Position numbers and translations under genes: made by a program. A model generated the notes under the pieces. It was not told the origin of the DNA and did not search any database. It was given only the letters and a program-made list of their open reading frames with translations. Source: Pseudoxanthomonas daejeonensis (lineage in GTDB: Bacteria; Pseudomonadota; Gammaproteobacteria; Xanthomonadales; Xanthomonadaceae). Taken from it: 64,000 nucleotides of DNA. The stretch covers positions 62,001 to 126,000 of the forward strand of contig NZ_PDWN01000006.1 in assembly GCF_010093205.1 (NCBI RefSeq). The letters run 5' to 3'. This document shows, piece by piece, positions 22,004-30,118 of this stretch (position 1 is its first letter; the number at the start of each line of letters is the position of its first letter).

Positions 22004-23137
22004 TCAGAACGCGACCTGCACCCGTGCCTCGAAGATTTCCGGGTCCAGGGTCACGCCGGCGCGTTCGGTGCGCAGCCACACGTAGTTGGCCTGCAGCTTG
22101 AGGTGCTTGCCCCAGTACCAGTTGGCGCCCAGGGTCCAGTCGCGCTGGCGGCCGCCGCGGATCACGCCGTCGTCCAGGTCCAGGTCGGCGTAGCGCAGTT
22201 GCACGTCCACCGCGCCGGCATCGCGCGTCGGCTTGAGGTTGCCGAACACGGCATTGGCGTACGGGCGGGTCTCGCCGGTCAGCGCCCACGAAGCCAGCGC
22301 ATACCAGCCGCGGCCGTCGAAGTCCGGGCGCCCGGAGGGGGCGTCGTTGTGGCCGACCAGGTACTCGGCCTGCAGCAGGAGCGGGCCGTCGCGCCAGGCC
22401 GCTTCCAGGCCGACGCGATCGATCGCGTCGCTGGCCATGCGGCCGGTGTCGACCAGGCGCACGTCGGTGAGCGCGGCGTTGGGCCGCGCGCGGAACCGGG
22501 CGATGCCGTCATCGCGGCGCTCGCGCGAGGCGCTGGCGCCCAGGTGCAGCACGCGGGTGTCGTCGGCGATGGGCGTGTGCACGACGCGGCCGGCGAAAGT
22601 GGTGCCTTCGTTCTCGTCCTCCAGGTCCGGGCCGCTGTAGCCGGCCAGGGCGAAGCGCCAGTTCTTGAGCTTGTTCCAGGTCCACTCCAGGCCGACACGG
22701 CGGCCCTGGTAGAACGCGTTCTCCGCGGCCGAGCGCTCCAGGTAGATCGTCGAAGACGTGCCGTAGCCGTAGTCCTCCCAGCCGACCAGGGTCTTCTGCT
22801 GGCCGCCGCGGAAGTCGCCGGCCGCCGTTTCCAGCTTGAGGTAGGCGTCGCCCCAGGTTTCGGCTTCGAAGTCGTAACCGGCGGTCAGCTCGAAGCTGCC
22901 CTTCTTGCGGGCGAACAGGTACAGCTCCTGCCGGCGCCAGTCGTCGGCGTCCTCGAACCGGCCTGCATCGTCGCCGAAACGGTTCACGTCGTACTGCAGC
23001 GTGCCCTTGGCACCGTACTCCACGCCCCCGGCGGTGAAGGAGGTCGGGACGCCGGCGGCCAAGGCGACGGGCGTAACGAGCAGCAGGGCGACGGCAATGA
23101 CCAAGCGACGGGGATGGGCGGCGAAACAGAAGGTCAT
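22004..23137 (-). CDS. Outer-membrane porin, phosphate-selective OprO/OprP type
   Basis: About 378 residues from the ATG at 23137, with a signal peptide (LVIAVALLLVTPVALA-AG). Alternating strands, aromatic girdle residues, and a terminal phenylalanine (EARVQVAF) are typical of outer-membrane barrels. Features such as DDWRRQELYLFARKKG, GYDFEAETWGDAYLKLE and YLVGHNDAPSG match the OprO/OprP family, which conducts phosphate or polyphosphate when phosphate is scarce. No pho box was identified upstream. ATGs further upstream (23203) exist but would precede the signal peptide with a charged tail. Solute specificity is inferred from family only. Confidence 0.88.
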   Translation of the reverse strand: MTFCFAAHPRRLVIAVALLLVTPVALAAGVPTSFTAGGVEYGAKGTLQYDVNRFGDDAGRFEDADDWRRQELYLFARKKGSFELTAGYDFEAETWGDAYLKLETAAGDFRGGQQKTLVGWEDYGYGTSSTIYLERSAAENAFYQGRRVGLEWTWNKLKNWRFALAGYSGPDLEDENEGTTFAGRVVHTPIADDTRVLHLGASASRERRDDGIARFRARPNAALTDVRLVDTGRMASDAIDRVGLEAAWRDGPLLLQAEYLVGHNDAPSGRPDFDGRGWYALASWALTGETRPYANAVFGNLKPTRDAGAVDVQLRYADLDLDDGVIRGGRQRDWTLGANWYWGKHLKLQANYVWLRTERAGVTLDPEIFEARVQVAF

Positions 23138-23330
23138 GGGTCGGTCTGCGGAATCGAAGGGGGAACGGCGGCCACGCCATTGTGACGACCCGCGCATGGG
23201 CACGGCGGCACGGACGGAACGGCGGTGCCGCGATGCGGCGATGCGGCGACACCATCGTTAGCGGCGCGGCGGCCCGGGACTGAACCGGCGGGGGTTACGG
23301 CCGTACCCGCGGCAGGTCGCAATGGGGGCC

Positions 23331-24581
23331 TCAGCCCGCGGACGCCTGCAGGCCACGCAGCGCGTAGAGCGGCTCCAGCAGCCATTCGTAGAGGCGGCGA
23401 CGCTCCCCGAGGATGTCGGCCTCCAGCAGCATGCCGGGGCGCAGCGGTTCGGCGTGGCCGTAGGCGAGCAGGTCCTGGCGATCAAGCTGGACCAGGACGC
23501 GATAGTAGGGCTCGGTCGAACCCGTGGCCGCTGCGCCCGCGATCGCATTGCGCGATACGCGCAGCACGCGGCCGCCCTGGTGGCCGAACTTCTGGAACGG
23601 ATAAGCCTGGTAGCGCAGCTGCACCCGGTCACCGGGACGGATGAAGCCGATCGCGCGACTGGGAACCTGCAGTTGCGCCTGGAGACGCGCCCCGCGCGGC
23701 AGCACGCTCAGCAGCGGTTGTCCGACCTGCACGACCTGGCCGGGCTCGACGAAGCGATTGGCCACGACGCCGCCCAGGGGTGCCTTCACCAGCAAACCCG
23801 CTTCCGCATCCTGGCGTGAACGCTCCTGCGCCAACAAGGCATGTTCGCGCCGGGCCGTGGCGTCGATGGCTTGCCGTTGCGCGGGCAGCTCGGCCAACGA
23901 CTGCTCCAGGCGGGCGATCTCGCGCACCAGCACGGTCGCCTGGCGCTCGAGTGCCTGCCTGGCATTGAGCATCTCCAGTACCGACTGTTCCTGCTGACGC
24001 ACCTGGACAAGGCTCACGTAGCCGGACTCGGCGACCGCCCGATAGCGCTCGGCGGTTTCGCGTCCCAGTTCGACCTGTTCGCCGCGGGTGGCGATCGAGA
24101 CCCGGACCTGGCCAAGTTCGAGACGCAAGGTGGCCAGCTGGCGACGCTGGCCGTGCTCCTGGATCGAGAGTTGCGTGATCTGGGCCTGGGCCAGTTGCGT
24201 GCTCGATAAGTCGCGGTCGTCCAGCCCCCGACCGATGACCGTGTGCGCATCCGCACCGGTCGCGGCCACGCGCGGCAGCTCGATCCGCACCAGTGCCTGG
24301 CCACCCGCGACGTCGGCGCCCTCCTCGACCGTCAGCCGCGCCACCACCCCCGTTACCGGCGCGACCACCGTGGACACGCCCAGGTCCGGCACCAGCTGTC
24401 CGCCCACGCGCGAGCGGCGCGTGTAGTCGCCAAGCAGCAGGAAGGACAGTACGGCGGCCGCGGCCAGCCCCGCGAATAGCGCACCCACCCACAGGGGAAG
24501 CGGCTGCGCGAGCGAGATCGTGCCCAGCCAGGCCTGCCGCCGCGCTTGCATCACCTCGGGGCGGAAGAGCGGCTCGTTCAC
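23331..24581 (-). CDS. HlyD-family adaptor of the bacteriocin exporter
   Basis: A 416-residue periplasmic adaptor starting with GTG at 24581, whose GTGA overlaps the stop of the exporter ABC gene. An N-terminal cytoplasmic tail (FRPEVMQARRQAWLG, characteristic of bacteriocin and colicin V adaptors) leads into one membrane helix near 30-50, a lipoyl half-motif (VVAPVTGVVARLTVEEGADV), a long coiled-coil hairpin (about 120-255), the second lipoyl half (LVKAPLGGVVANRFVEPGQVV) and a beta-barrel domain. It should bridge the C39 ABC exporter to a TolC-type outer-membrane channel, which is not encoded here. Confidence 0.94.
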   Translation of the reverse strand: MNEPLFRPEVMQARRQAWLGTISLAQPLPLWVGALFAGLAAAAVLSFLLLGDYTRRSRVGGQLVPDLGVSTVVAPVTGVVARLTVEEGADVAGGQALVRIELPRVAATGADAHTVIGRGLDDRDLSSTQLAQAQITQLSIQEHGQRRQLATLRLELGQVRVSIATRGEQVELGRETAERYRAVAESGYVSLVQVRQQEQSVLEMLNARQALERQATVLVREIARLEQSLAELPAQRQAIDATARREHALLAQERSRQDAEAGLLVKAPLGGVVANRFVEPGQVVQVGQPLLSVLPRGARLQAQLQVPSRAIGFIRPGDRVQLRYQAYPFQKFGHQGGRVLRVSRNAIAGAAATGSTEPYYRVLVQLDRQDLLAYGHAEPLRPGMLLEADILGERRRLYEWLLEPLYALRGLQASAG

Positions 24582-26728
24582 GCGGGCAGGCCAGCGGCCG
24601 GCTGCTCGTCCCGGTCACGCGCCCCCGAGGTTGATGCACCGCAGGCACCATCGGCGGCAGCGCGTGACCGTTCGCGTATCCGGCCATCGCGCAGCTCCAG
24701 CACACGGTCGGCGCTGGCGATGGTTTCGGGTCGATGCGCAATGATGATGCGGGTGAGGTGCAAGCCCCGCACCGCCTCGTTGACCGCGTGCTCGCGACCC
24801 ACATCGAGGTGGCTGGTCGCCTCGTCCAGAACGAGCAGTTGCGGTTGCCGGTACAGGGCCCGCGCCAGGATCACGCGCTGCTTCTGTCCGCCCGACAGGG
24901 TCGTTCCCATGTCACCGATCAGGCTGTGGTATCCCATCGGCATGGCCATGATCTCGTCGTGCACGGAAGCCAGGCGGGCCGCTTCCTCGACGCGGGGTAG
25001 ATCGGGATCCTCCTCGCCGAGTGCGATGTTGTCGGCGATGTTGCCCGCGAACAGGTGGTCGTCCTGCATCACCGCCGCGACCATCTGACGGTAACCGGAG
25101 GCGCCAAGCTGTCGCAGTTCGCGTCCGCCGATCCGGATTTCACCCTCGGCGGCCGGCAGCAGTCCCAGCAGCAGCTTGGCCAGCGTGGTCTTGCCGCATC
25201 CCGAGGCACCGGCGATGGCGACAGATTCGCCCGGCGTTACCTGGAAGCTGCAATCGCGCAGGACCCAGGGCTCTCCCTCGGCGTAGCGAAAGCCCAGTCC
25301 ATGCACCTCGATGCCCGCGTGCACAGGGGCGGGCTGCTCCGGTTGGTGCAACCCCTCTTCCGGCTCGGTCAGGACGATGTCGGCCAGGCGCTCGCCATGG
25401 AGACGCAGCATCCGGAACTCGATTCCCCGGTCGATCAGCGCCGCCACGCGCTGGGAGAACTGGTCCTTGTACGCCAGGTAGGCGATCAGCATGCCGACGG
25501 AGAACACGCTGTCCAGCGCCAGGAGCGCGCCGATCCAGATCACCACGATCCGTTCGACCCCGAACACCAGCTGGCTGGCCGAACTGAAGCCGAGCGCCAT
25601 CCGCGCAAGCCGCACCTCGCCGTTGATCGTCTCGCCCATCAGGTTGAGATAGGCCGACTGGCGGAAGGCTTCGCAGCGCGCGACCTTGACCGACTGCATG
25701 CCACGAATCGATTCGAACAGGTGGCTCTGCTGACGCGCCGCCGCCACGAGTTGCCGCTCGGTTCCTTCGCGCAGCGGACGGTAGGCGAGCAGCCGGATGC
25801 ACAGGTACAGTGCCACGGCAACGAGGGTGACGATCGCCAGGCGGGGACTGTAGAGCAGCATCATCGACAAGGTAGCCAGGGCCATCATCCCGTCGATCAG
25901 TGCTTCCACGAACCCGGTCGTGATCGTGCGCTGGATCGTCTGCACGCTGCCGAAGCGCGACACCACGTCACCCAGGTGGCGTTTCTCGAAATAGCCCATT
26001 GGAAGGCGCAGCAGGTGCCCGAACACTCCGGCCATCCACTGCATGCCCATCTGCGCGGAGATCCGGACCACTGCCCAACCACGCATGGCGCTGATGCCGA
26101 CCTGCAGCAGCATCGACAGCAGAAAGCCGATGCCGAGCACGACCAGCAACTGGCGATCCGCCGAAACCAGCACCTGGTCGACGACCCACTGCATGAAGAA
26201 CGGCGCCAGCAGGACGAATACCTGCAAGGCCAGGGAGAGCAGCAGGACCATGCCCAGTGCGCGCCACAGACCTGATACAGGGCCGATCAATTTGCGGAGA
26301 GGCACCGCAAGCGTCTGCTTCTCAGGCTTGAACCTTGGCCCGGGCACAAGCTCCAGAGCCACCCCAGTGAAGTTGCGCGACAACTCATCCATGCCTACCG
26401 ATCTCTGCCCGAACGCCGGATCGATAATCTCAGCGCCGTGTCGCGACATCTTCTTCAGCACGACAAAATGATTTAGACCCCAGTGCAGGACGCACGGAGT
26501 CTGGAGCTGCGCAAGCTCACTGGGCTCGAGCCGCAAGGCGCGACTCACAAGACCAAGCTGCCCCGCGCTACCCATGATCCGCGAAAGACTTGCACCCTTG
26601 AGCGAAAACGAAAAGCGGCGCCTCCATTCACGCAACGGCATGGTCATGCCGTGGTGCGAAGCAACTATGGCTAGACAAGCCAAGCCGCACTCAGCGGGCT
26701 CCGCTTGCAGGATGACATTCCGTGTCAT
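24578..26728 (-). CDS. C39-peptidase bacteriocin ABC exporter
   Basis: A 716-residue exporter of the CvaB/LagD type. Domain order: N-terminal C39 cysteine protease (Q8, C14 in QAEPAECGLACL; H87 in LNHFVV; D103 in IIDPAFG), a six-helix membrane domain (about 155-440), and an ATPase with Walker A GASGCGKT (507-514), signature LSGGQ (611-615) and Walker B LLVLDEA (631-637). All protease residues are present, so it should cleave double-glycine leaders during export. It lies 13 bases after the CPBP gene and overlaps the HlyD gene. The precursor is encoded two genes upstream on the same strand. Confidence 0.96.
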   Translation of the reverse strand: MTRNVILQAEPAECGLACLAIVASHHGMTMPLREWRRRFSFSLKGASLSRIMGSAGQLGLVSRALRLEPSELAQLQTPCVLHWGLNHFVVLKKMSRHGAEIIDPAFGQRSVGMDELSRNFTGVALELVPGPRFKPEKQTLAVPLRKLIGPVSGLWRALGMVLLLSLALQVFVLLAPFFMQWVVDQVLVSADRQLLVVLGIGFLLSMLLQVGISAMRGWAVVRISAQMGMQWMAGVFGHLLRLPMGYFEKRHLGDVVSRFGSVQTIQRTITTGFVEALIDGMMALATLSMMLLYSPRLAIVTLVAVALYLCIRLLAYRPLREGTERQLVAAARQQSHLFESIRGMQSVKVARCEAFRQSAYLNLMGETINGEVRLARMALGFSSASQLVFGVERIVVIWIGALLALDSVFSVGMLIAYLAYKDQFSQRVAALIDRGIEFRMLRLHGERLADIVLTEPEEGLHQPEQPAPVHAGIEVHGLGFRYAEGEPWVLRDCSFQVTPGESVAIAGASGCGKTTLAKLLLGLLPAAEGEIRIGGRELRQLGASGYRQMVAAVMQDDHLFAGNIADNIALGEEDPDLPRVEEAARLASVHDEIMAMPMGYHSLIGDMGTTLSGGQKQRVILARALYRQPQLLVLDEATSHLDVGREHAVNEAVRGLHLTRIIIAHRPETIASADRVLELRDGRIRERSRAAADGACGASTSGARDRDEQPAAGLPA

Positions 26729-26741
26729 GCCTACCTTACGC

Positions 26742-27317
26742 TCACCAAATCATGTATAGCAACATGACATATGCGTTTATCGTTCCATGAACGATCACGC
26801 AATGCGCCGTTTTAGCCTTAAACGTGTAGCGCAACCAACATAGTGTTATTGACACGATGAAGGCCCAGATCATTACGCCCTTATGGGCATAAGCAAATAG
26901 AACAGAGACGACGAGAGTGGAAACCAATCGACCAAGCAGTCCATCGATAGAGTGCAAGAGCAAATGACGAACCAACTTCTCTTCAAACCAAGGCGTCACG
27001 ACTAAGATCCCGAGCACTGGAAGGATCACCATCCACTGCCAATCGAAACTCGAAGAGTGAGTGGTCCAAATCCAGAACCCGAACGTCCACACTGCGCAAA
27101 GTCCGAGGGAAGTTAACGACAGCACCCGTAGGGCGCGATGCCCCCAACCAAGTCCAGGGTCGGATTCTGGAAATATACGTACGAGAGCGAGCGTAATGAG
27201 CAGCTGGGCAAGCGTTTCCACGCCAGGAATTCCTGCGTGCTTGCTGATGGCCGCTATAGCCATGTAGATGAACATGGATACAAAGAAGCCTACGAAGTAG
27301 TAGCCCTTCTCCGACAC
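26742..27317 (-). CDS. CPBP-family intramembrane protease, probable bacteriocin immunity or processing protein
   Basis: A 191-residue membrane protein. The start is the GTG at 27317, directly behind a consensus AGGAGG, rather than an ATG further upstream that would run back through a hairpin and the precursor 3' end. It has about six hydrophobic helices and the CPBP (CAAX protease/bacteriocin-processing) motifs EEKLVR (112-117), FAYAHKG with H145, and H177-x3-N181. CPBP proteins next to class II bacteriocin genes (for example in plantaricin and sakacin loci) confer self-immunity; maturation is an alternative. The gene is AT-richer than its surroundings, like the precursor. Confidence 0.85.
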   Translation of the reverse strand: MSEKGYYFVGFFVSMFIYMAIAAISKHAGIPGVETLAQLLITLALVRIFPESDPGLGWGHRALRVLSLTSLGLCAVWTFGFWIWTTHSSSFDWQWMVILPVLGILVVTPWFEEKLVRHLLLHSIDGLLGRLVSTLVVSVLFAYAHKGVMIWAFIVSITLCWLRYTFKAKTAHCVIVHGTINAYVMLLYMIW

Positions 27318-27337
27318 TTGTCCTCCTATAAAGGAAA

Positions 27338-27360
27338 GGGGAGGGTATTCAACCCTCCCC
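27338..27360 (-). terminator. Intercistronic hairpin between bacteriocin precursor and CPBP gene
   Basis: A perfect 9-bp stem (GGGGAGGGT with ACCCTCCCC, 5-base loop) lies six bases past the precursor stop. On the transcribed strand it is followed by TTTCCTTTATA, then the AGGAGG of the next gene. The weak T-tract suggests a partial terminator or 3' stabiliser that makes precursor mRNA more abundant than the exporter mRNA. Confidence 0.75.
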
Positions 27361-27366
27361 CTGCGC

Positions 27367-27561
27367 TCACCTTTCCAAAATTTTGGTGATGGTCCAGGCG
27401 CTTGTGCCAGGCGTATCAGCCATGGCATTCCATACATCCGTTGCTAGCTGCTTCCAGTCACTCGCCGAGCCCTCACACTTGACCCCGCTGGGAAAACCTG
27501 CGGCGCAAACAACTTCGGCACCTGAGACGCTATCGATCTCACCAACATTCAGACTACGCAT
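27367..27561 (-). CDS. Bacteriocin/microcin-like precursor with double-glycine-type leader
   Basis: A 64-residue peptide; the ATG at 27561 is preceded by AAGGAG at eight bases. Residues 1-15, MRSLNVGEIDSVSGA, fit the double-glycine leader pattern (M-x-x-L-x-x-x-E-I-x-x-V-S-G-G/A), with G14-A15 as the predicted C39 cleavage site. The mature 49-residue peptide has two cysteines, 4 and 14 (EVVC, GVKC), which could form a disulfide, and is slightly acidic (six Asp/Glu against four Lys/Arg), unlike most cationic bacteriocins. It heads the operon with CPBP protease, C39 exporter and HlyD adaptor. No family-level match is recalled for the mature part. A signalling peptide is an alternative. Confidence 0.82.
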   Translation of the reverse strand: MRSLNVGEIDSVSGAEVVCAAGFPSGVKCEGSASDWKQLATDVWNAMADTPGTSAWTITKILER

Positions 27562-27590
27562 GACATCCACTCCTTGGTTGTATGCATGTC

Positions 27591-27700
27591 GGGCCACCTT
27601 GGCCCGCACGGCCGGCTTGGCCGGCGTGCTAGCTATCGCATATCCGGACGTCCACCGGGATAGGAAGATCCCGCATCCTGGGGTCAGAATTCCCTGACCC
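27591..27700. other. Structured spacer between maeB and the bacteriocin operon
   Basis: Three inverted repeats lie here: GGGCC-ACCTT-GGCCC (27591-27605), GCAC-GCCGGC-TTG-GCCGGC-GTGC (27606-27629, one bulged base), and GGGTCA-GAATTCCC-TGACCC (27681-27700), the last just past the maeB stop and built from the dispersed-motif core. None has a T-run. The promoter of the bacteriocin operon should be in this gap, but no clear -35/-10 pair stands out. Confidence 0.55.
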
Positions 27701-27703
27701 GCA

Positions 27704-29998
27704 TCACCCCTTCCGCTCCCCCTCCATCTGCGCCCGGATCTGCGCATCGACCGCGGCGATGGCGGTCATGTTCAGCAGCCGGCGCGGGGTAGCGCTGGTG
27801 GTGAGGATGTGGACCGGCTTGCTGATGCCCATCAGGATCGGGCCGATGGCCACGCCCTCGGTGACCACGCGGACCATGTTGTAGGCGATGTTGGCCGCGT
27901 CCAGGTTGGGCAGCACGAACAGGTTGGCGCGGCCCTTCAAGGTGCTGTTGGGCATGATCTTCTGCCGCAGCAGTTCGTCCCAGGCCGTGTCGCCCTGCAT
28001 CTCGCCGTCGACGTTGAGCTTGGGCACGCGCTTGAGCAGCAGTTCGCGGACCTTGCGCATCTTCAGCGCGCCGGGGGTCTCGTGGCTGCCGAAGTTGGAG
28101 TGCGACAGCAACGCCACGCGCGGCTCGATCCCGAACAGCTTCAGGCGGTAGGCGGCCTGCAGGGTCGCCTCGGCGATCTGCTCGGCGGTCGGGTCGTCCT
28201 GCACGTGGGTGTCCAGGAAGAACCACACGCCCTGGTTGTTGATCACCCCGGTCATGGCCGCGGTGGACTGCACGCCTGGGTCCAGGCCGATCACGCTGCG
28301 CACGTAGCCCAGCTTCTTGTGGAAGCGGCCGACCACGCCGGTGAGCAGGGCGTCGGCTTCGCCGCGGGCGACCATCACCGAGCCGATCAGGGTCGGGCGC
28401 GAGCGCATCAGGTTCTTGGCCGCCTGCACGGTGACGCCGCGGCGCTCGGTGATGGCGTGGTAGTGCTGCCAGTAGTCGTTGAAGCGCGGGTCGTCGTCCT
28501 GGTTGGTGATCTCGAAGTCCACGCCGGCCTTCATGCGCAGGCCCAGGCGCTCGATCCGCGCCTCGATCACGTCCGGGCGGCCGATCAGGATCGGGAAGGC
28601 CACGCCTTCGTCGATCACCGTCTGCACCGCGCGCAGCACCACTTCCTCTTCGCCCTCGGCGTAGGCCACGCGCTTCTTGTCGGCGCGGGCCTTGTCGTAC
28701 ACCGGCTTCATCATCAGGCTGGTGCGGTAGACGAACTGGCCCAGCTTCTCGCGGTAGGCGGCCATGTCCTCGATCGGGCGCTCGGCAATGCCCGAGTCCA
28801 TCGCCGCCTGGGCCACGGCCGAGGACAGCTCGACCAGCAGGCGCGGGTCGAACGGGCGCGGGATCAGGTATTCGGCGCCGAAGCAGGGGATGTCGTCGCC
28901 GTAGGCGCTGCCCAGGTCCGAGGCCTCGCGCCGGGCCAGCGCGGCAATGGCCTGCACGCAGGCGACCTTCATCGCCTCGTTGATGCCGGTGGCGCCCACG
29001 TCCAGCGCGCCGCGGAACAGGTACGGGAAGCACAGCGCGTTGTTGACCTGGTTCGGGTAGTCCGAACGGCCGGTGGCGACGATCGCATCCGGGCGCACGC
29101 GCTTGGCGTCCTCGGGCAGGATCTCCGGGTATGGATTGGCCAGGGCCAGGATGATCGGGCGATCGGCCATGGTCGCGACCATTTCGGCCTTGAGCACGCC
29201 GCCGGCCGACAGGCCCAGGAAGATGTCGGCGCCGTTGACGATTTCCTCCAACGTGCGCGCATCGGTGTCGCGGGCGTAGCGCTGCTTGTCCGGGTCCAGG
29301 TCGGTGCGGCCGGAGTGGATCACGCCGCCGCGGTCGAACGCGGTGATGTTCTCCTTCTTCAGGCCCAGCGACACCAGCATGTCCACGCAGGAGACGCCGG
29401 CCGCGCCCATGCCGGTGGTGGCCAGCTTGACCTCGGCGATGTTCTTGCCGACCACGTGCAGCGCGTTGACCACCGCCGCACCGACGATGATCGCGGTGCC
29501 GTGCTGGTCGTCATGGAACACCGGGATGTTCATCCGCTCGCGCAGCTTGCGCTCCACGACGAAGCATTCCGGCGCCTTGATGTCTTCCAGGTTGATGCCG
29601 CCGAAGGTCGGCTCCAGGCTGGCGATGATGTCGACCAGCTTGTCCGGGTCGTTCTCGTTGATCTCGATGTCGAACACGTCGATGCCGGCGAACTTCTTGA
29701 ACAGCACGCCCTTGCCTTCCATGACCGGCTTGCTGGCCAGCGGGCCGATGTTGCCCAGGCCCAGCACCGCGGTGCCGTTGGTGACCACGGCGACCAGGTT
29801 GCCCCGGGCCGTCAGCTCGCTGACCTGCTTGGGGTCTTCGACGATCGCCTCGCAGGCGTAGGCCACGCCGGGGGAGTAGGCCAGCGCCAGGTCGCGCTGG
29901 GTCAGCATCGCCTTGGTCGGGGCGACCTTGATCTTGCCCGGGCGCGGATGGCGGTGGTAGTCGAGGGCGGCCTGCTTGAAGTCTTCTTGTTCGGACAT
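27704..29998 (-). CDS. maeB: NADP-dependent malic enzyme with phosphotransacetylase-like domain
   Basis: A 764-residue MaeB that oxidatively decarboxylates malate to pyruvate, supplying NADPH. The N-terminal catalytic half contains [27 protein letters not shown], the metal/substrate region [15 protein letters not shown] and [11 protein letters not shown], and an NAD(P)-binding motif [11 protein letters not shown]. From about residue 430 a phosphotransacetylase-like domain follows, common to gram-negative MaeB and thought to be regulatory (acetyl-CoA binding). The start is the MSEQEDF ATG at 29998; a longer frame to 30121 is less likely. The gene precedes the bacteriocin operon on the same strand. 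Confidence 0.96.
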
Positions 29999-30118
29999 CG
30001 TATCGGTGCTCGGGCTCGGGTGGCGCTGGGCGCACGGGAATGGGCCGATTCTAACCGTGGCGCGGCACGGCGGTCCCGATCCGCAGGTGCCCCCGCCCCT
30101 GCAGGCGCGATGCAGCCG

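What the first reader, a model, noticed from the sequence alone, without database searches (positions are those of the whole stretch)
23331..27561. Uncharacterised bacteriocin/microcin-like operon with an acidic, two-cysteine precursor
Seen: a 64-residue ORF with leader MRSLNVGEIDSVSGA, then a CPBP membrane protease, a C39-peptidase ABC exporter with all catalytic residues, and an HlyD adaptor, all on one strand with tight or overlapping junctions. Known: C39 exporters cut double-glycine leaders, and CPBP proteins give immunity in class II bacteriocin loci. Inferred: a complete export-and-immunity locus for a mature 49-residue peptide with Cys4 and Cys14 and net negative charge. I do not recall a family for it. 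Precursor and CPBP genes are AT-richer than the exporter genes, suggesting module exchange. The cleavage site is Gly-Ala rather than Gly-Gly.
Basis: partly seen in the sequence, partly recalled or inferred. Interest (0 to 1): 0.85.

Follow-up and report, generated by a model that had tools for sequence, protein, structure and literature searches.

The report
Swappable two-cysteine peptide and CPBP locus
A Pseudoxanthomonas-type bacterium carries an uncatalogued small secreted peptide, probably an antibacterial one, that in its relatives is nearly always followed by the same kind of membrane protein, which probably protects the producer, and related species carry different versions of the pair at the same chromosomal spot.

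Summary
On the minus strand lie a 64-aa double-glycine-type precursor (27367-27561), a hairpin, a CPBP/Rce1-like membrane protein (26742-27317, likely GTG start, so no overlap), a C39-peptidase ABC exporter (24578-26728) and an HlyD adaptor (23331-24581). The precursor matches no Pfam or NCBIfam family, but 15 homologous loci were found in its order. A CPBP homologue follows the precursor, same strand, in 15 of 16 loci, although the exporter is adjacent in only 7; 8 have it elsewhere and in G016 none was found. So the unit is precursor plus CPBP; the exporter is shared machinery. In Pseudoxanthomonas the pair sits at one site beside the malic-enzyme gene, and mature peptide plus CPBP are exchanged between species while flank and exporter stay put. 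dN/dS of 0.18-0.37 in three pairs of precursors shows real genes. Best reading: a class II microcin-like bacteriocin with cognate CPBP immunity. One CPBP partner (G104) has lost five of seven motif residues, hinting that protection may not need proteolysis. Activity and immunity are not shown; a signalling peptide is not excluded. A new precursor family of a known kind.

The parts
27367..27561 (-). precursor gene, 64 aa; leader MRSLNVGEIDSVSGA, mature EVVCAAGFPSGVKCEGSASDWKQLATDVWNAMADTPGTSAWTITKILER
   Evidence: ORF and RBS; homologues; dN/dS in homologous pairs
27336..27362 (-). terminator-like stem-loop between precursor and CPBP (11 pairs)
   Evidence: a stem-loop lies in the 70 nt after the precursor stop in 15 of 16 loci, z -1.3 to -5.8, G117 excepted (+0.4)
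26742..27317 (-). CPBP/Rce1-like intramembrane protein, 191 aa from GTG; all seven motif residues kept (E112, E113, R117, F141, H145, H177, N181)
   Evidence: Pfam PF02517 37 bits; motif alignment
24578..26728 (-). C39-peptidase ABC exporter, 716 aa
   Evidence: Pfam; catalytic and ATPase motifs; closest solved relative the bacteriocin transporter 4ry2, E 1e-93
23331..24581 (-). HlyD-family periplasmic adaptor, 416 aa
   Evidence: Pfam HlyD_3
27562..27640 (-). 5' leader region with two GC-rich hairpins before the RBS, similar by eye in G203, G239 and G087
   Evidence: sequences; fold z -3.65
27704..30010 (-). malic enzyme/phosphotransacetylase-like gene, the conserved flank (anchor, not part of the system)
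   Evidence: Pfam malic, Malic_M, PTA_PTB; shared flank

Best explanation
A class II microcin-like bacteriocin locus. The precursor is probably made in excess over the downstream genes because a hairpin separates them; its 15-residue leader is recognised and cut after Gly14-Ala15 by the C39 domain of the ABC exporter; with the HlyD adaptor and a chromosomal outer-membrane channel the 49-aa peptide leaves the cell, where a Cys4-Cys14 disulfide closes an N-terminal hairpin ahead of a Trp-containing helix. The CPBP protein in the inner membrane protects the producer against its own peptide version. Mature peptide and CPBP are inherited and exchanged as a cognate pair, while the exporter is generic, encoded beside the pair or elsewhere. 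Shown: genes, motifs, pair conservation, shared site, exchange, purifying selection. Inferred: expression, cleavage, export, disulfide and fold, toxicity, immunity.
For: A CPBP homologue is directly downstream and co-directional in 15 of 16 precursor loci, gap 42-88 nt (the 88 of G203 rests on an assumed start), including two loci of another family of the order (G649, G581). It follows the precursor, not the exporter: of 51 stretches scanned (30 reaching 1.5 kb either side of exporters, 12 wider ones round exporters, partly the same ones, and 9 malic-enzyme flanks) BLAST finds this CPBP group in 2, both with a family precursor; the G093 exporter stretch ends short of its CPBP. Cysteines: both in 12 of 15 full precursors, neither in 2, one in 1. 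One site: 6 other same-genus loci plus G117 share the malic-enzyme flank with the window. Exchange: malic-enzyme DNA differs 5.4% between G000 and G203 and the exporter is 77% identical, yet mature peptides are 36% and CPBPs 28% identical, whereas G000 and G239 share 57% and 56%; DNA identity to G203 falls from 90-98% in the flank to 33-49% over the end of the precursor and CPBP and is 58-86% in the exporter genes. G060 keeps a CPBP with all motifs behind a precursor whose leader is gone, as an orphan immunity gene would be. Peptide and CPBP distances correlate: Mantel r 0.49, p 0.017, 9 pairs; r 0.35, p 0.012, 14 pairs.
Against: No activity, export or immunity data. G077 keeps the precursor but has no CPBP there, which would be suicidal if the peptide were toxic and exported; G016 has the pair, and no exporter was found. 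Only 1 of 10 precursors touches Pfam Bacteriocin_IIc, weakly (E 0.0043). The Mantel tests do not remove host phylogeny. The structure model is too poor to use (mean pLDDT 46). Pfam gives the G104 partner no match; its kinship rests on BLAST (33.5% over 164 aa, E 9e-23).
Confidence: 0.62

Rival explanations
1. A secreted signalling peptide (peptide pheromone) exported by the C39 system, with the CPBP protein acting as its receptor or as a regulatory intramembrane protease.
For: C39 exporters also carry pheromones (recalled); the weak NCBIfam touch on the G239 precursor is to peptide pheromone VP1 (E 0.026, residues 4-31); paired version changes also fit a peptide and its receptor.
Against: I saw no kinase or regulator travelling with the pair, but I searched the loci only for chosen partners and did not annotate every neighbour. 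A CPBP without catalytic residues (G104) argues against a purely proteolytic role.
Confidence: 0.17
2. The CPBP protein is a maturation or clearance protease: it trims the peptide or degrades its leader.
For: 13 of 15 partners keep all seven motif residues, so most are probably active; the only NCBIfam match, far below cut-off, is to the sorting-type protease MrtJ (20.3 against 75 bits).
Against: The C39 domain already supplies leader cleavage; G104 lacks the motifs and G077 lacks the gene while their precursors still look constrained (dN 0.20, dS 0.55); CPBP stays intact in G060 although its precursor has no leader.
Confidence: 0.12
3. A mostly degenerate relic: the pair once encoded a bacteriocin, but in this strain it is silent or no longer exported.
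For: Decay is seen in relatives (G060 leader lost, G016 Cys and exporter missing, G104 pseudoenzyme, G077 CPBP gone); no sigma-70-like promoter in 23000-28000 (0 found, 0.6 expected), which is weak since promoters here may differ.
Against: In the window all four genes are intact with the motifs, an RBS before the precursor and CPBP, and compact junctions, and G649/G581 show purifying selection on both genes.
Confidence: 0.09

Closest known systems
Class II microcins of Enterobacterales (MccV and kin)
   Same: N-terminal leader cut by a C39 (PCAT) exporter, HlyD-type adaptor, small peptide, linked immunity candidate (background in PMC13174018, passages seen; leader length and disulfides recalled)
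   Different: no sequence relation found in Pfam or NCBIfam; the partner is a CPBP protein; the peptide-CPBP pair, not the exporter, is the conserved unit
Cdz contact-dependent bacteriocin of Caulobacter (PMC5380434, abstract and passages seen)
   Same: type I secretion pair with small secreted toxins and a membrane immunity protein; the authors note that secretion genes stay most similar while toxins vary between relatives, and that CaaX proteases occur in such islands
   Different: Cdz toxins carry glycine zippers, this one does not; in Caulobacter the neighbouring CaaX protease was dispensable, CdzI being the immunity protein
CPBP/Abi immunity of Gram-positive class II bacteriocins (Kjos 2010, seen only as a reference; content recalled)
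   Same: CPBP gene next to a double-glycine-leader peptide
   Different: Gram-negative host; one partner of the group has lost the catalytic motifs
RaxX-RaxA-RaxB of Xanthomonas (PMC6637879, listing abstract and passages seen)
   Same: 60-residue precursor, double-glycine leader, RaxB-type exporter, related bacteria
   Different: RaxX is sulfated on a tyrosine; this mature peptide has no tyrosine; none of the four genes is a sulfotransferase (no wider search for one was made)

Membership tests
class II microcin / double-glycine bacteriocin | N-terminal leader of the double-glycine type | tested here: met
   leaders end GG in 13 of 15 full precursors and GA in 2, G000 and G104; that GA is also cut is recalled
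class II microcin / double-glycine bacteriocin | C39-peptidase ABC exporter and adaptor available | tested here: met
   both adjacent in the window; an exporter of this group is in the genome of 15 of 16 precursor carriers, in G581 only its C-terminal end at a contig edge
class II microcin / double-glycine bacteriocin | match to a curated bacteriocin family | tested here: not met
   0 families for the window precursor; 1 of 10 members touches PF10439 at E 0.0043; I therefore say 'microcin-like'
class II microcin / double-glycine bacteriocin | antibacterial activity and specific immunity | not testable with these tools
   needs peptide and strains
CPBP (type II CAAX protease, Rce1-like) | EE...R, F...H and H...N motifs (recalled as defining) and a family match | tested here: met
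   window protein and 12 of the other 14 partners have all seven residues; G016 EE to EK, G104 lost five of seven; PF02517 37 bits for the window protein
Cdz glycine-zipper bacteriocins | glycine zipper in the toxin | tested here: not met
   mature sequence read directly: one GxxxG (GFPSG), no repeat of it (sequence)
RaxX | sulfatable tyrosine in the mature peptide | tested here: not met
   no Tyr in the 49 residues (sequence)
pediocin-like class IIa | YGNGV box (recalled) | tested here: not met
   absent from the precursor (sequence)

The most novel reading that the evidence does not exclude
One chromosomal site beside the malic-enzyme gene works in Pseudoxanthomonas as a kin-discrimination locus: strains carry one version of a disulfide peptide with its own CPBP protein, the pair is swapped whole between species, and CPBP protects by binding the peptide or its target, not by proteolysis, so that catalysis can be lost as in G104.
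Probability: 0.28. Interest if true: 0.74.

Novelty: new member of a known kind. Interest (0 to 1): 0.5.

Why it matters
It adds an uncatalogued precursor family with a dedicated partner, and it offers natural variants (an apparently active CPBP, a pseudoenzyme, an orphan CPBP, a CPBP-less precursor, matched and mismatched pairs at one site) that make an open question testable: whether CPBP proteins of bacteriocin loci protect through proteolysis or through binding.

Tried and rejected
Search of GTDB contigs with the single precursor found no relative; a closer four-row alignment found three named loci. AlphaFold2 of the precursor with four rows gave mean pLDDT 46: strands at 18-22 and 26-30 and a helix at 33-49, not used as evidence and not sent to a fold search. 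The 5' leader region was tested as a dispersed repeat: one full copy in the genome, 7 other matches of 20-29 nt. Plasmids: no match. PHROGs: best E 0.079, not credible. PDB: precursor profile best E 0.11, CPBP none. Class-wide sample: 1 of 369 genomes, the window's own. In one search, 31 of 395 genomes had a match at E 0.01 or better; I accepted 11 at E 1.7e-9 or better and 3 weaker ones (G326, G093, G124) by leader plus CPBP plus exporter context; of the other 17 I read two (G044, G127: other leader-bearing peptides) and did not read 15. In one search, 9 of 397 matched at E 0.001 or better; G581 and G649 were new, G044 was not accepted. Kept in the 16 although broken or incomplete: G060 (leader lost), G077 (no CPBP), G581 (exporter cut by the contig end). 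The Mantel sets leave out G060 and G077; the 9-pair set also leaves out G326, G124, G093, G649 and G581. For the window's own nearest pair (G000, G239) dS could not be computed. A structure model of CPBP was not made.

Papers: I saw search listings with starts of abstracts and passages of PMC13174018, PMC11885251, PMC6637879, PMC8692603 and PMC5380434. None of what I saw mentions this precursor family; the library omits most subscription papers, so I do not claim it is unpublished.
Full report
What is there. On the minus strand the window holds, in order of transcription, a 64-aa precursor (27367-27561), a terminator-like hairpin (27336-27362), a CPBP/Rce1-like membrane protein (26742-27317), a C39-peptidase ABC exporter (24578-26728) and an HlyD adaptor (23331-24581). 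The CPBP frame has an upstream ATG at 27437 inside the precursor, but a GTG at 27317 sits right behind a good ribosome-binding site, which removes the apparent overlap. The C39 and ATPase motifs are in place. Precursor and CPBP are AT-rich (54.4 and 50.2% GC) against 64.8 and 70.5% for the exporter genes.

A new precursor family. The window precursor matches nothing in Pfam, NCBIfam or plasmids and only at E 0.079 in PHROGs; ten relatives give nothing convincing in Pfam and NCBIfam, the best being Bacteriocin_IIc at E 0.0043 for one. The single sequence finds relatives in 5 of 148 other genomes of the family at E 1.5e-4 or better; a six-row profile finds 11 of 395 genomes, the own one included, at E 1.7e-9 or better; a ten-row profile adds two genomes of another family of the order and none in a class-wide sample (1 of 369, itself). 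With three weak relatives taken in by context this makes 16 loci. The core is C-x(8-12)-C-x-G, mostly followed by (S/A)D(W/F) and a segment like W...A..SP.T.PG. Both cysteines are present in 12 of 15 full precursors, neither in G326 and G124, and only the second in G016. Substitution rates point to purifying selection: dN 0.061, dS 0.343 (G649/G581); 0.20, 0.55 (G104/G077); 0.28, 1.31 (G203/G087); the other pairs tried are near or beyond saturation.

The conserved unit is precursor plus CPBP. In 15 of 16 loci a CPBP homologue follows the precursor on the same strand after 42-88 nt; a stem-loop lies in the 70 nt after the precursor stop in 15 of 16, z -1.3 to -5.8 (exception G117, +0.4). The exporter is adjacent in G000, G203, G326, G124, G093, G649 and, at a contig edge, G581; it lies elsewhere in G239, G117, G087, G215, G188, G060, G104 and G077; in G016 none was found, its only C39 domain being in a 297-aa frame and its best ABC match lacking the C39 part. 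Conversely the exporter does not bring this CPBP: of 51 stretches scanned (30 exporter stretches, 12 wider exporter stretches that partly repeat them, 9 malic-enzyme flanks of which one holds an exporter) BLAST finds it in 2, both with a family precursor; the stretch of G093 ends before its CPBP; one more (G172) has a distant CPBP by motif and Pfam.

One site, changing content. Seven of the homologous loci (G203, G239, G188, G087, G215, G060 and, from another genus, G117) lie beside the same malic-enzyme/phosphotransacetylase gene as in the window; in 6 of the 7 the far side also matches the window's SpoIIE/STAS region, and in G203 the contig ends first. Of 17 genomes of the genus, 7 have the pair there (G060 with a broken precursor), G155 has an exporter there with other leader-bearing peptides, in 8 no pair was found in the stretch read (short stretches for G262, G272, G136), and in G010 only the end of the flank was found, at two contig edges. 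Sixteen of 17 have a match to the exporter at E 1e-100 or better (G113 two, G282 a part of one); G010 has none. In G000, G203 and G155 the only copy is at this site; in the other 13 it is elsewhere and 65-67% identical to the window's.

Exchange. G000 and G203 are closest by the flank (5.4% DNA difference) and share the exporter (77% identity), yet their mature peptides are 36% and CPBPs 28% identical. G000 pairs with G239 (57 and 56%) and G203 with G087 (71 and 49%), although those hosts are further off by the flank (7.2 and 9.5%). Along the G000-G203 alignment, in blocks of 100 bases, DNA identity is 90-98% in the flank, 75-77% over 5' leader and precursor start, 33-49% over the rest and CPBP, 62% in the block across the CPBP end, then 58-86% in the exporter genes. 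Peptide and CPBP distances correlate moderately (Mantel r 0.49, p 0.017, 9 pairs; r 0.35, p 0.012, 14 pairs), without control for host phylogeny.

What CPBP may do. Thirteen of 15 partners keep all seven motif residues. G016 has EK for EE. G104 has lost five of seven (first Glu, Phe, both His, Asn) yet remains a homologue by BLAST (33.5% over 164 aa, E 9e-23) in the right place, though Pfam no longer sees it. G060 keeps an intact CPBP behind a precursor without leader. An orphan CPBP and a pseudoenzyme both fit immunity better than maturation, and the pseudoenzyme suggests that protection may not depend on catalysis. Against this, G104 may be decaying: its relative G077 has no CPBP at that place.

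Judgement. The most likely reading is a class II microcin-like bacteriocin with cognate CPBP immunity (0.62). A pheromone (0.17), CPBP as processing protease (0.12) and a silent relic (0.09) remain. The nearest described systems are class II microcins, the Cdz system of Caulobacter, whose authors report stable secretion genes with variable toxins and nearby CaaX proteases (PMC5380434, passages), and CPBP immunity of Gram-positive bacteriocins (recalled). It is a new precursor family of a known kind; its natural variants make it a good test case for how CPBP immunity works.

Noticed in passing
L121, L122, L124, L127 (second exporter loci of G087, G060, G188, G136): Another uncatalogued group of leader-bearing precursors of about 79-97 aa with two conserved cysteines (a C....PDS block and a C-terminal CGELR-like block), one or two per locus (one of them scanned, no Pfam match above cut-off).
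   Followed up: partly
L096 near 8085, minus strand (G060): At the malic-enzyme site of G060, between the flank gene and the leaderless precursor, sits a 92-aa precursor of that other two-cysteine group with an intact leader (MRSLKVQEIHSVAGG); perhaps a newer cargo that displaced the old one.
   Followed up: partly
L119:1708-2070 (G155): At the same malic-enzyme site G155 has the exporter with two other leader-bearing peptides (54 and 61 aa) and a small membrane-type protein: possibly a two-peptide bacteriocin.
   Followed up: partly
window 27562-27640: Two GC-rich hairpins just before the precursor RBS (z -3.65), similar by eye in G203, G239 and G087; one full copy in the genome. Possible expression control.
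   Followed up: partly
L129:3167-3619 (G172): A second, distant CPBP-like protein (PF02517 23.3 bits, just over the cut-off of 22.4) near a second-locus exporter with several leader-bearing peptides.
   Followed up: no
L002, L003 (G000:C11): Two C39-domain proteins in frames of 287 and 380 aa, too short for ABC exporters, elsewhere in the genome.
   Followed up: no
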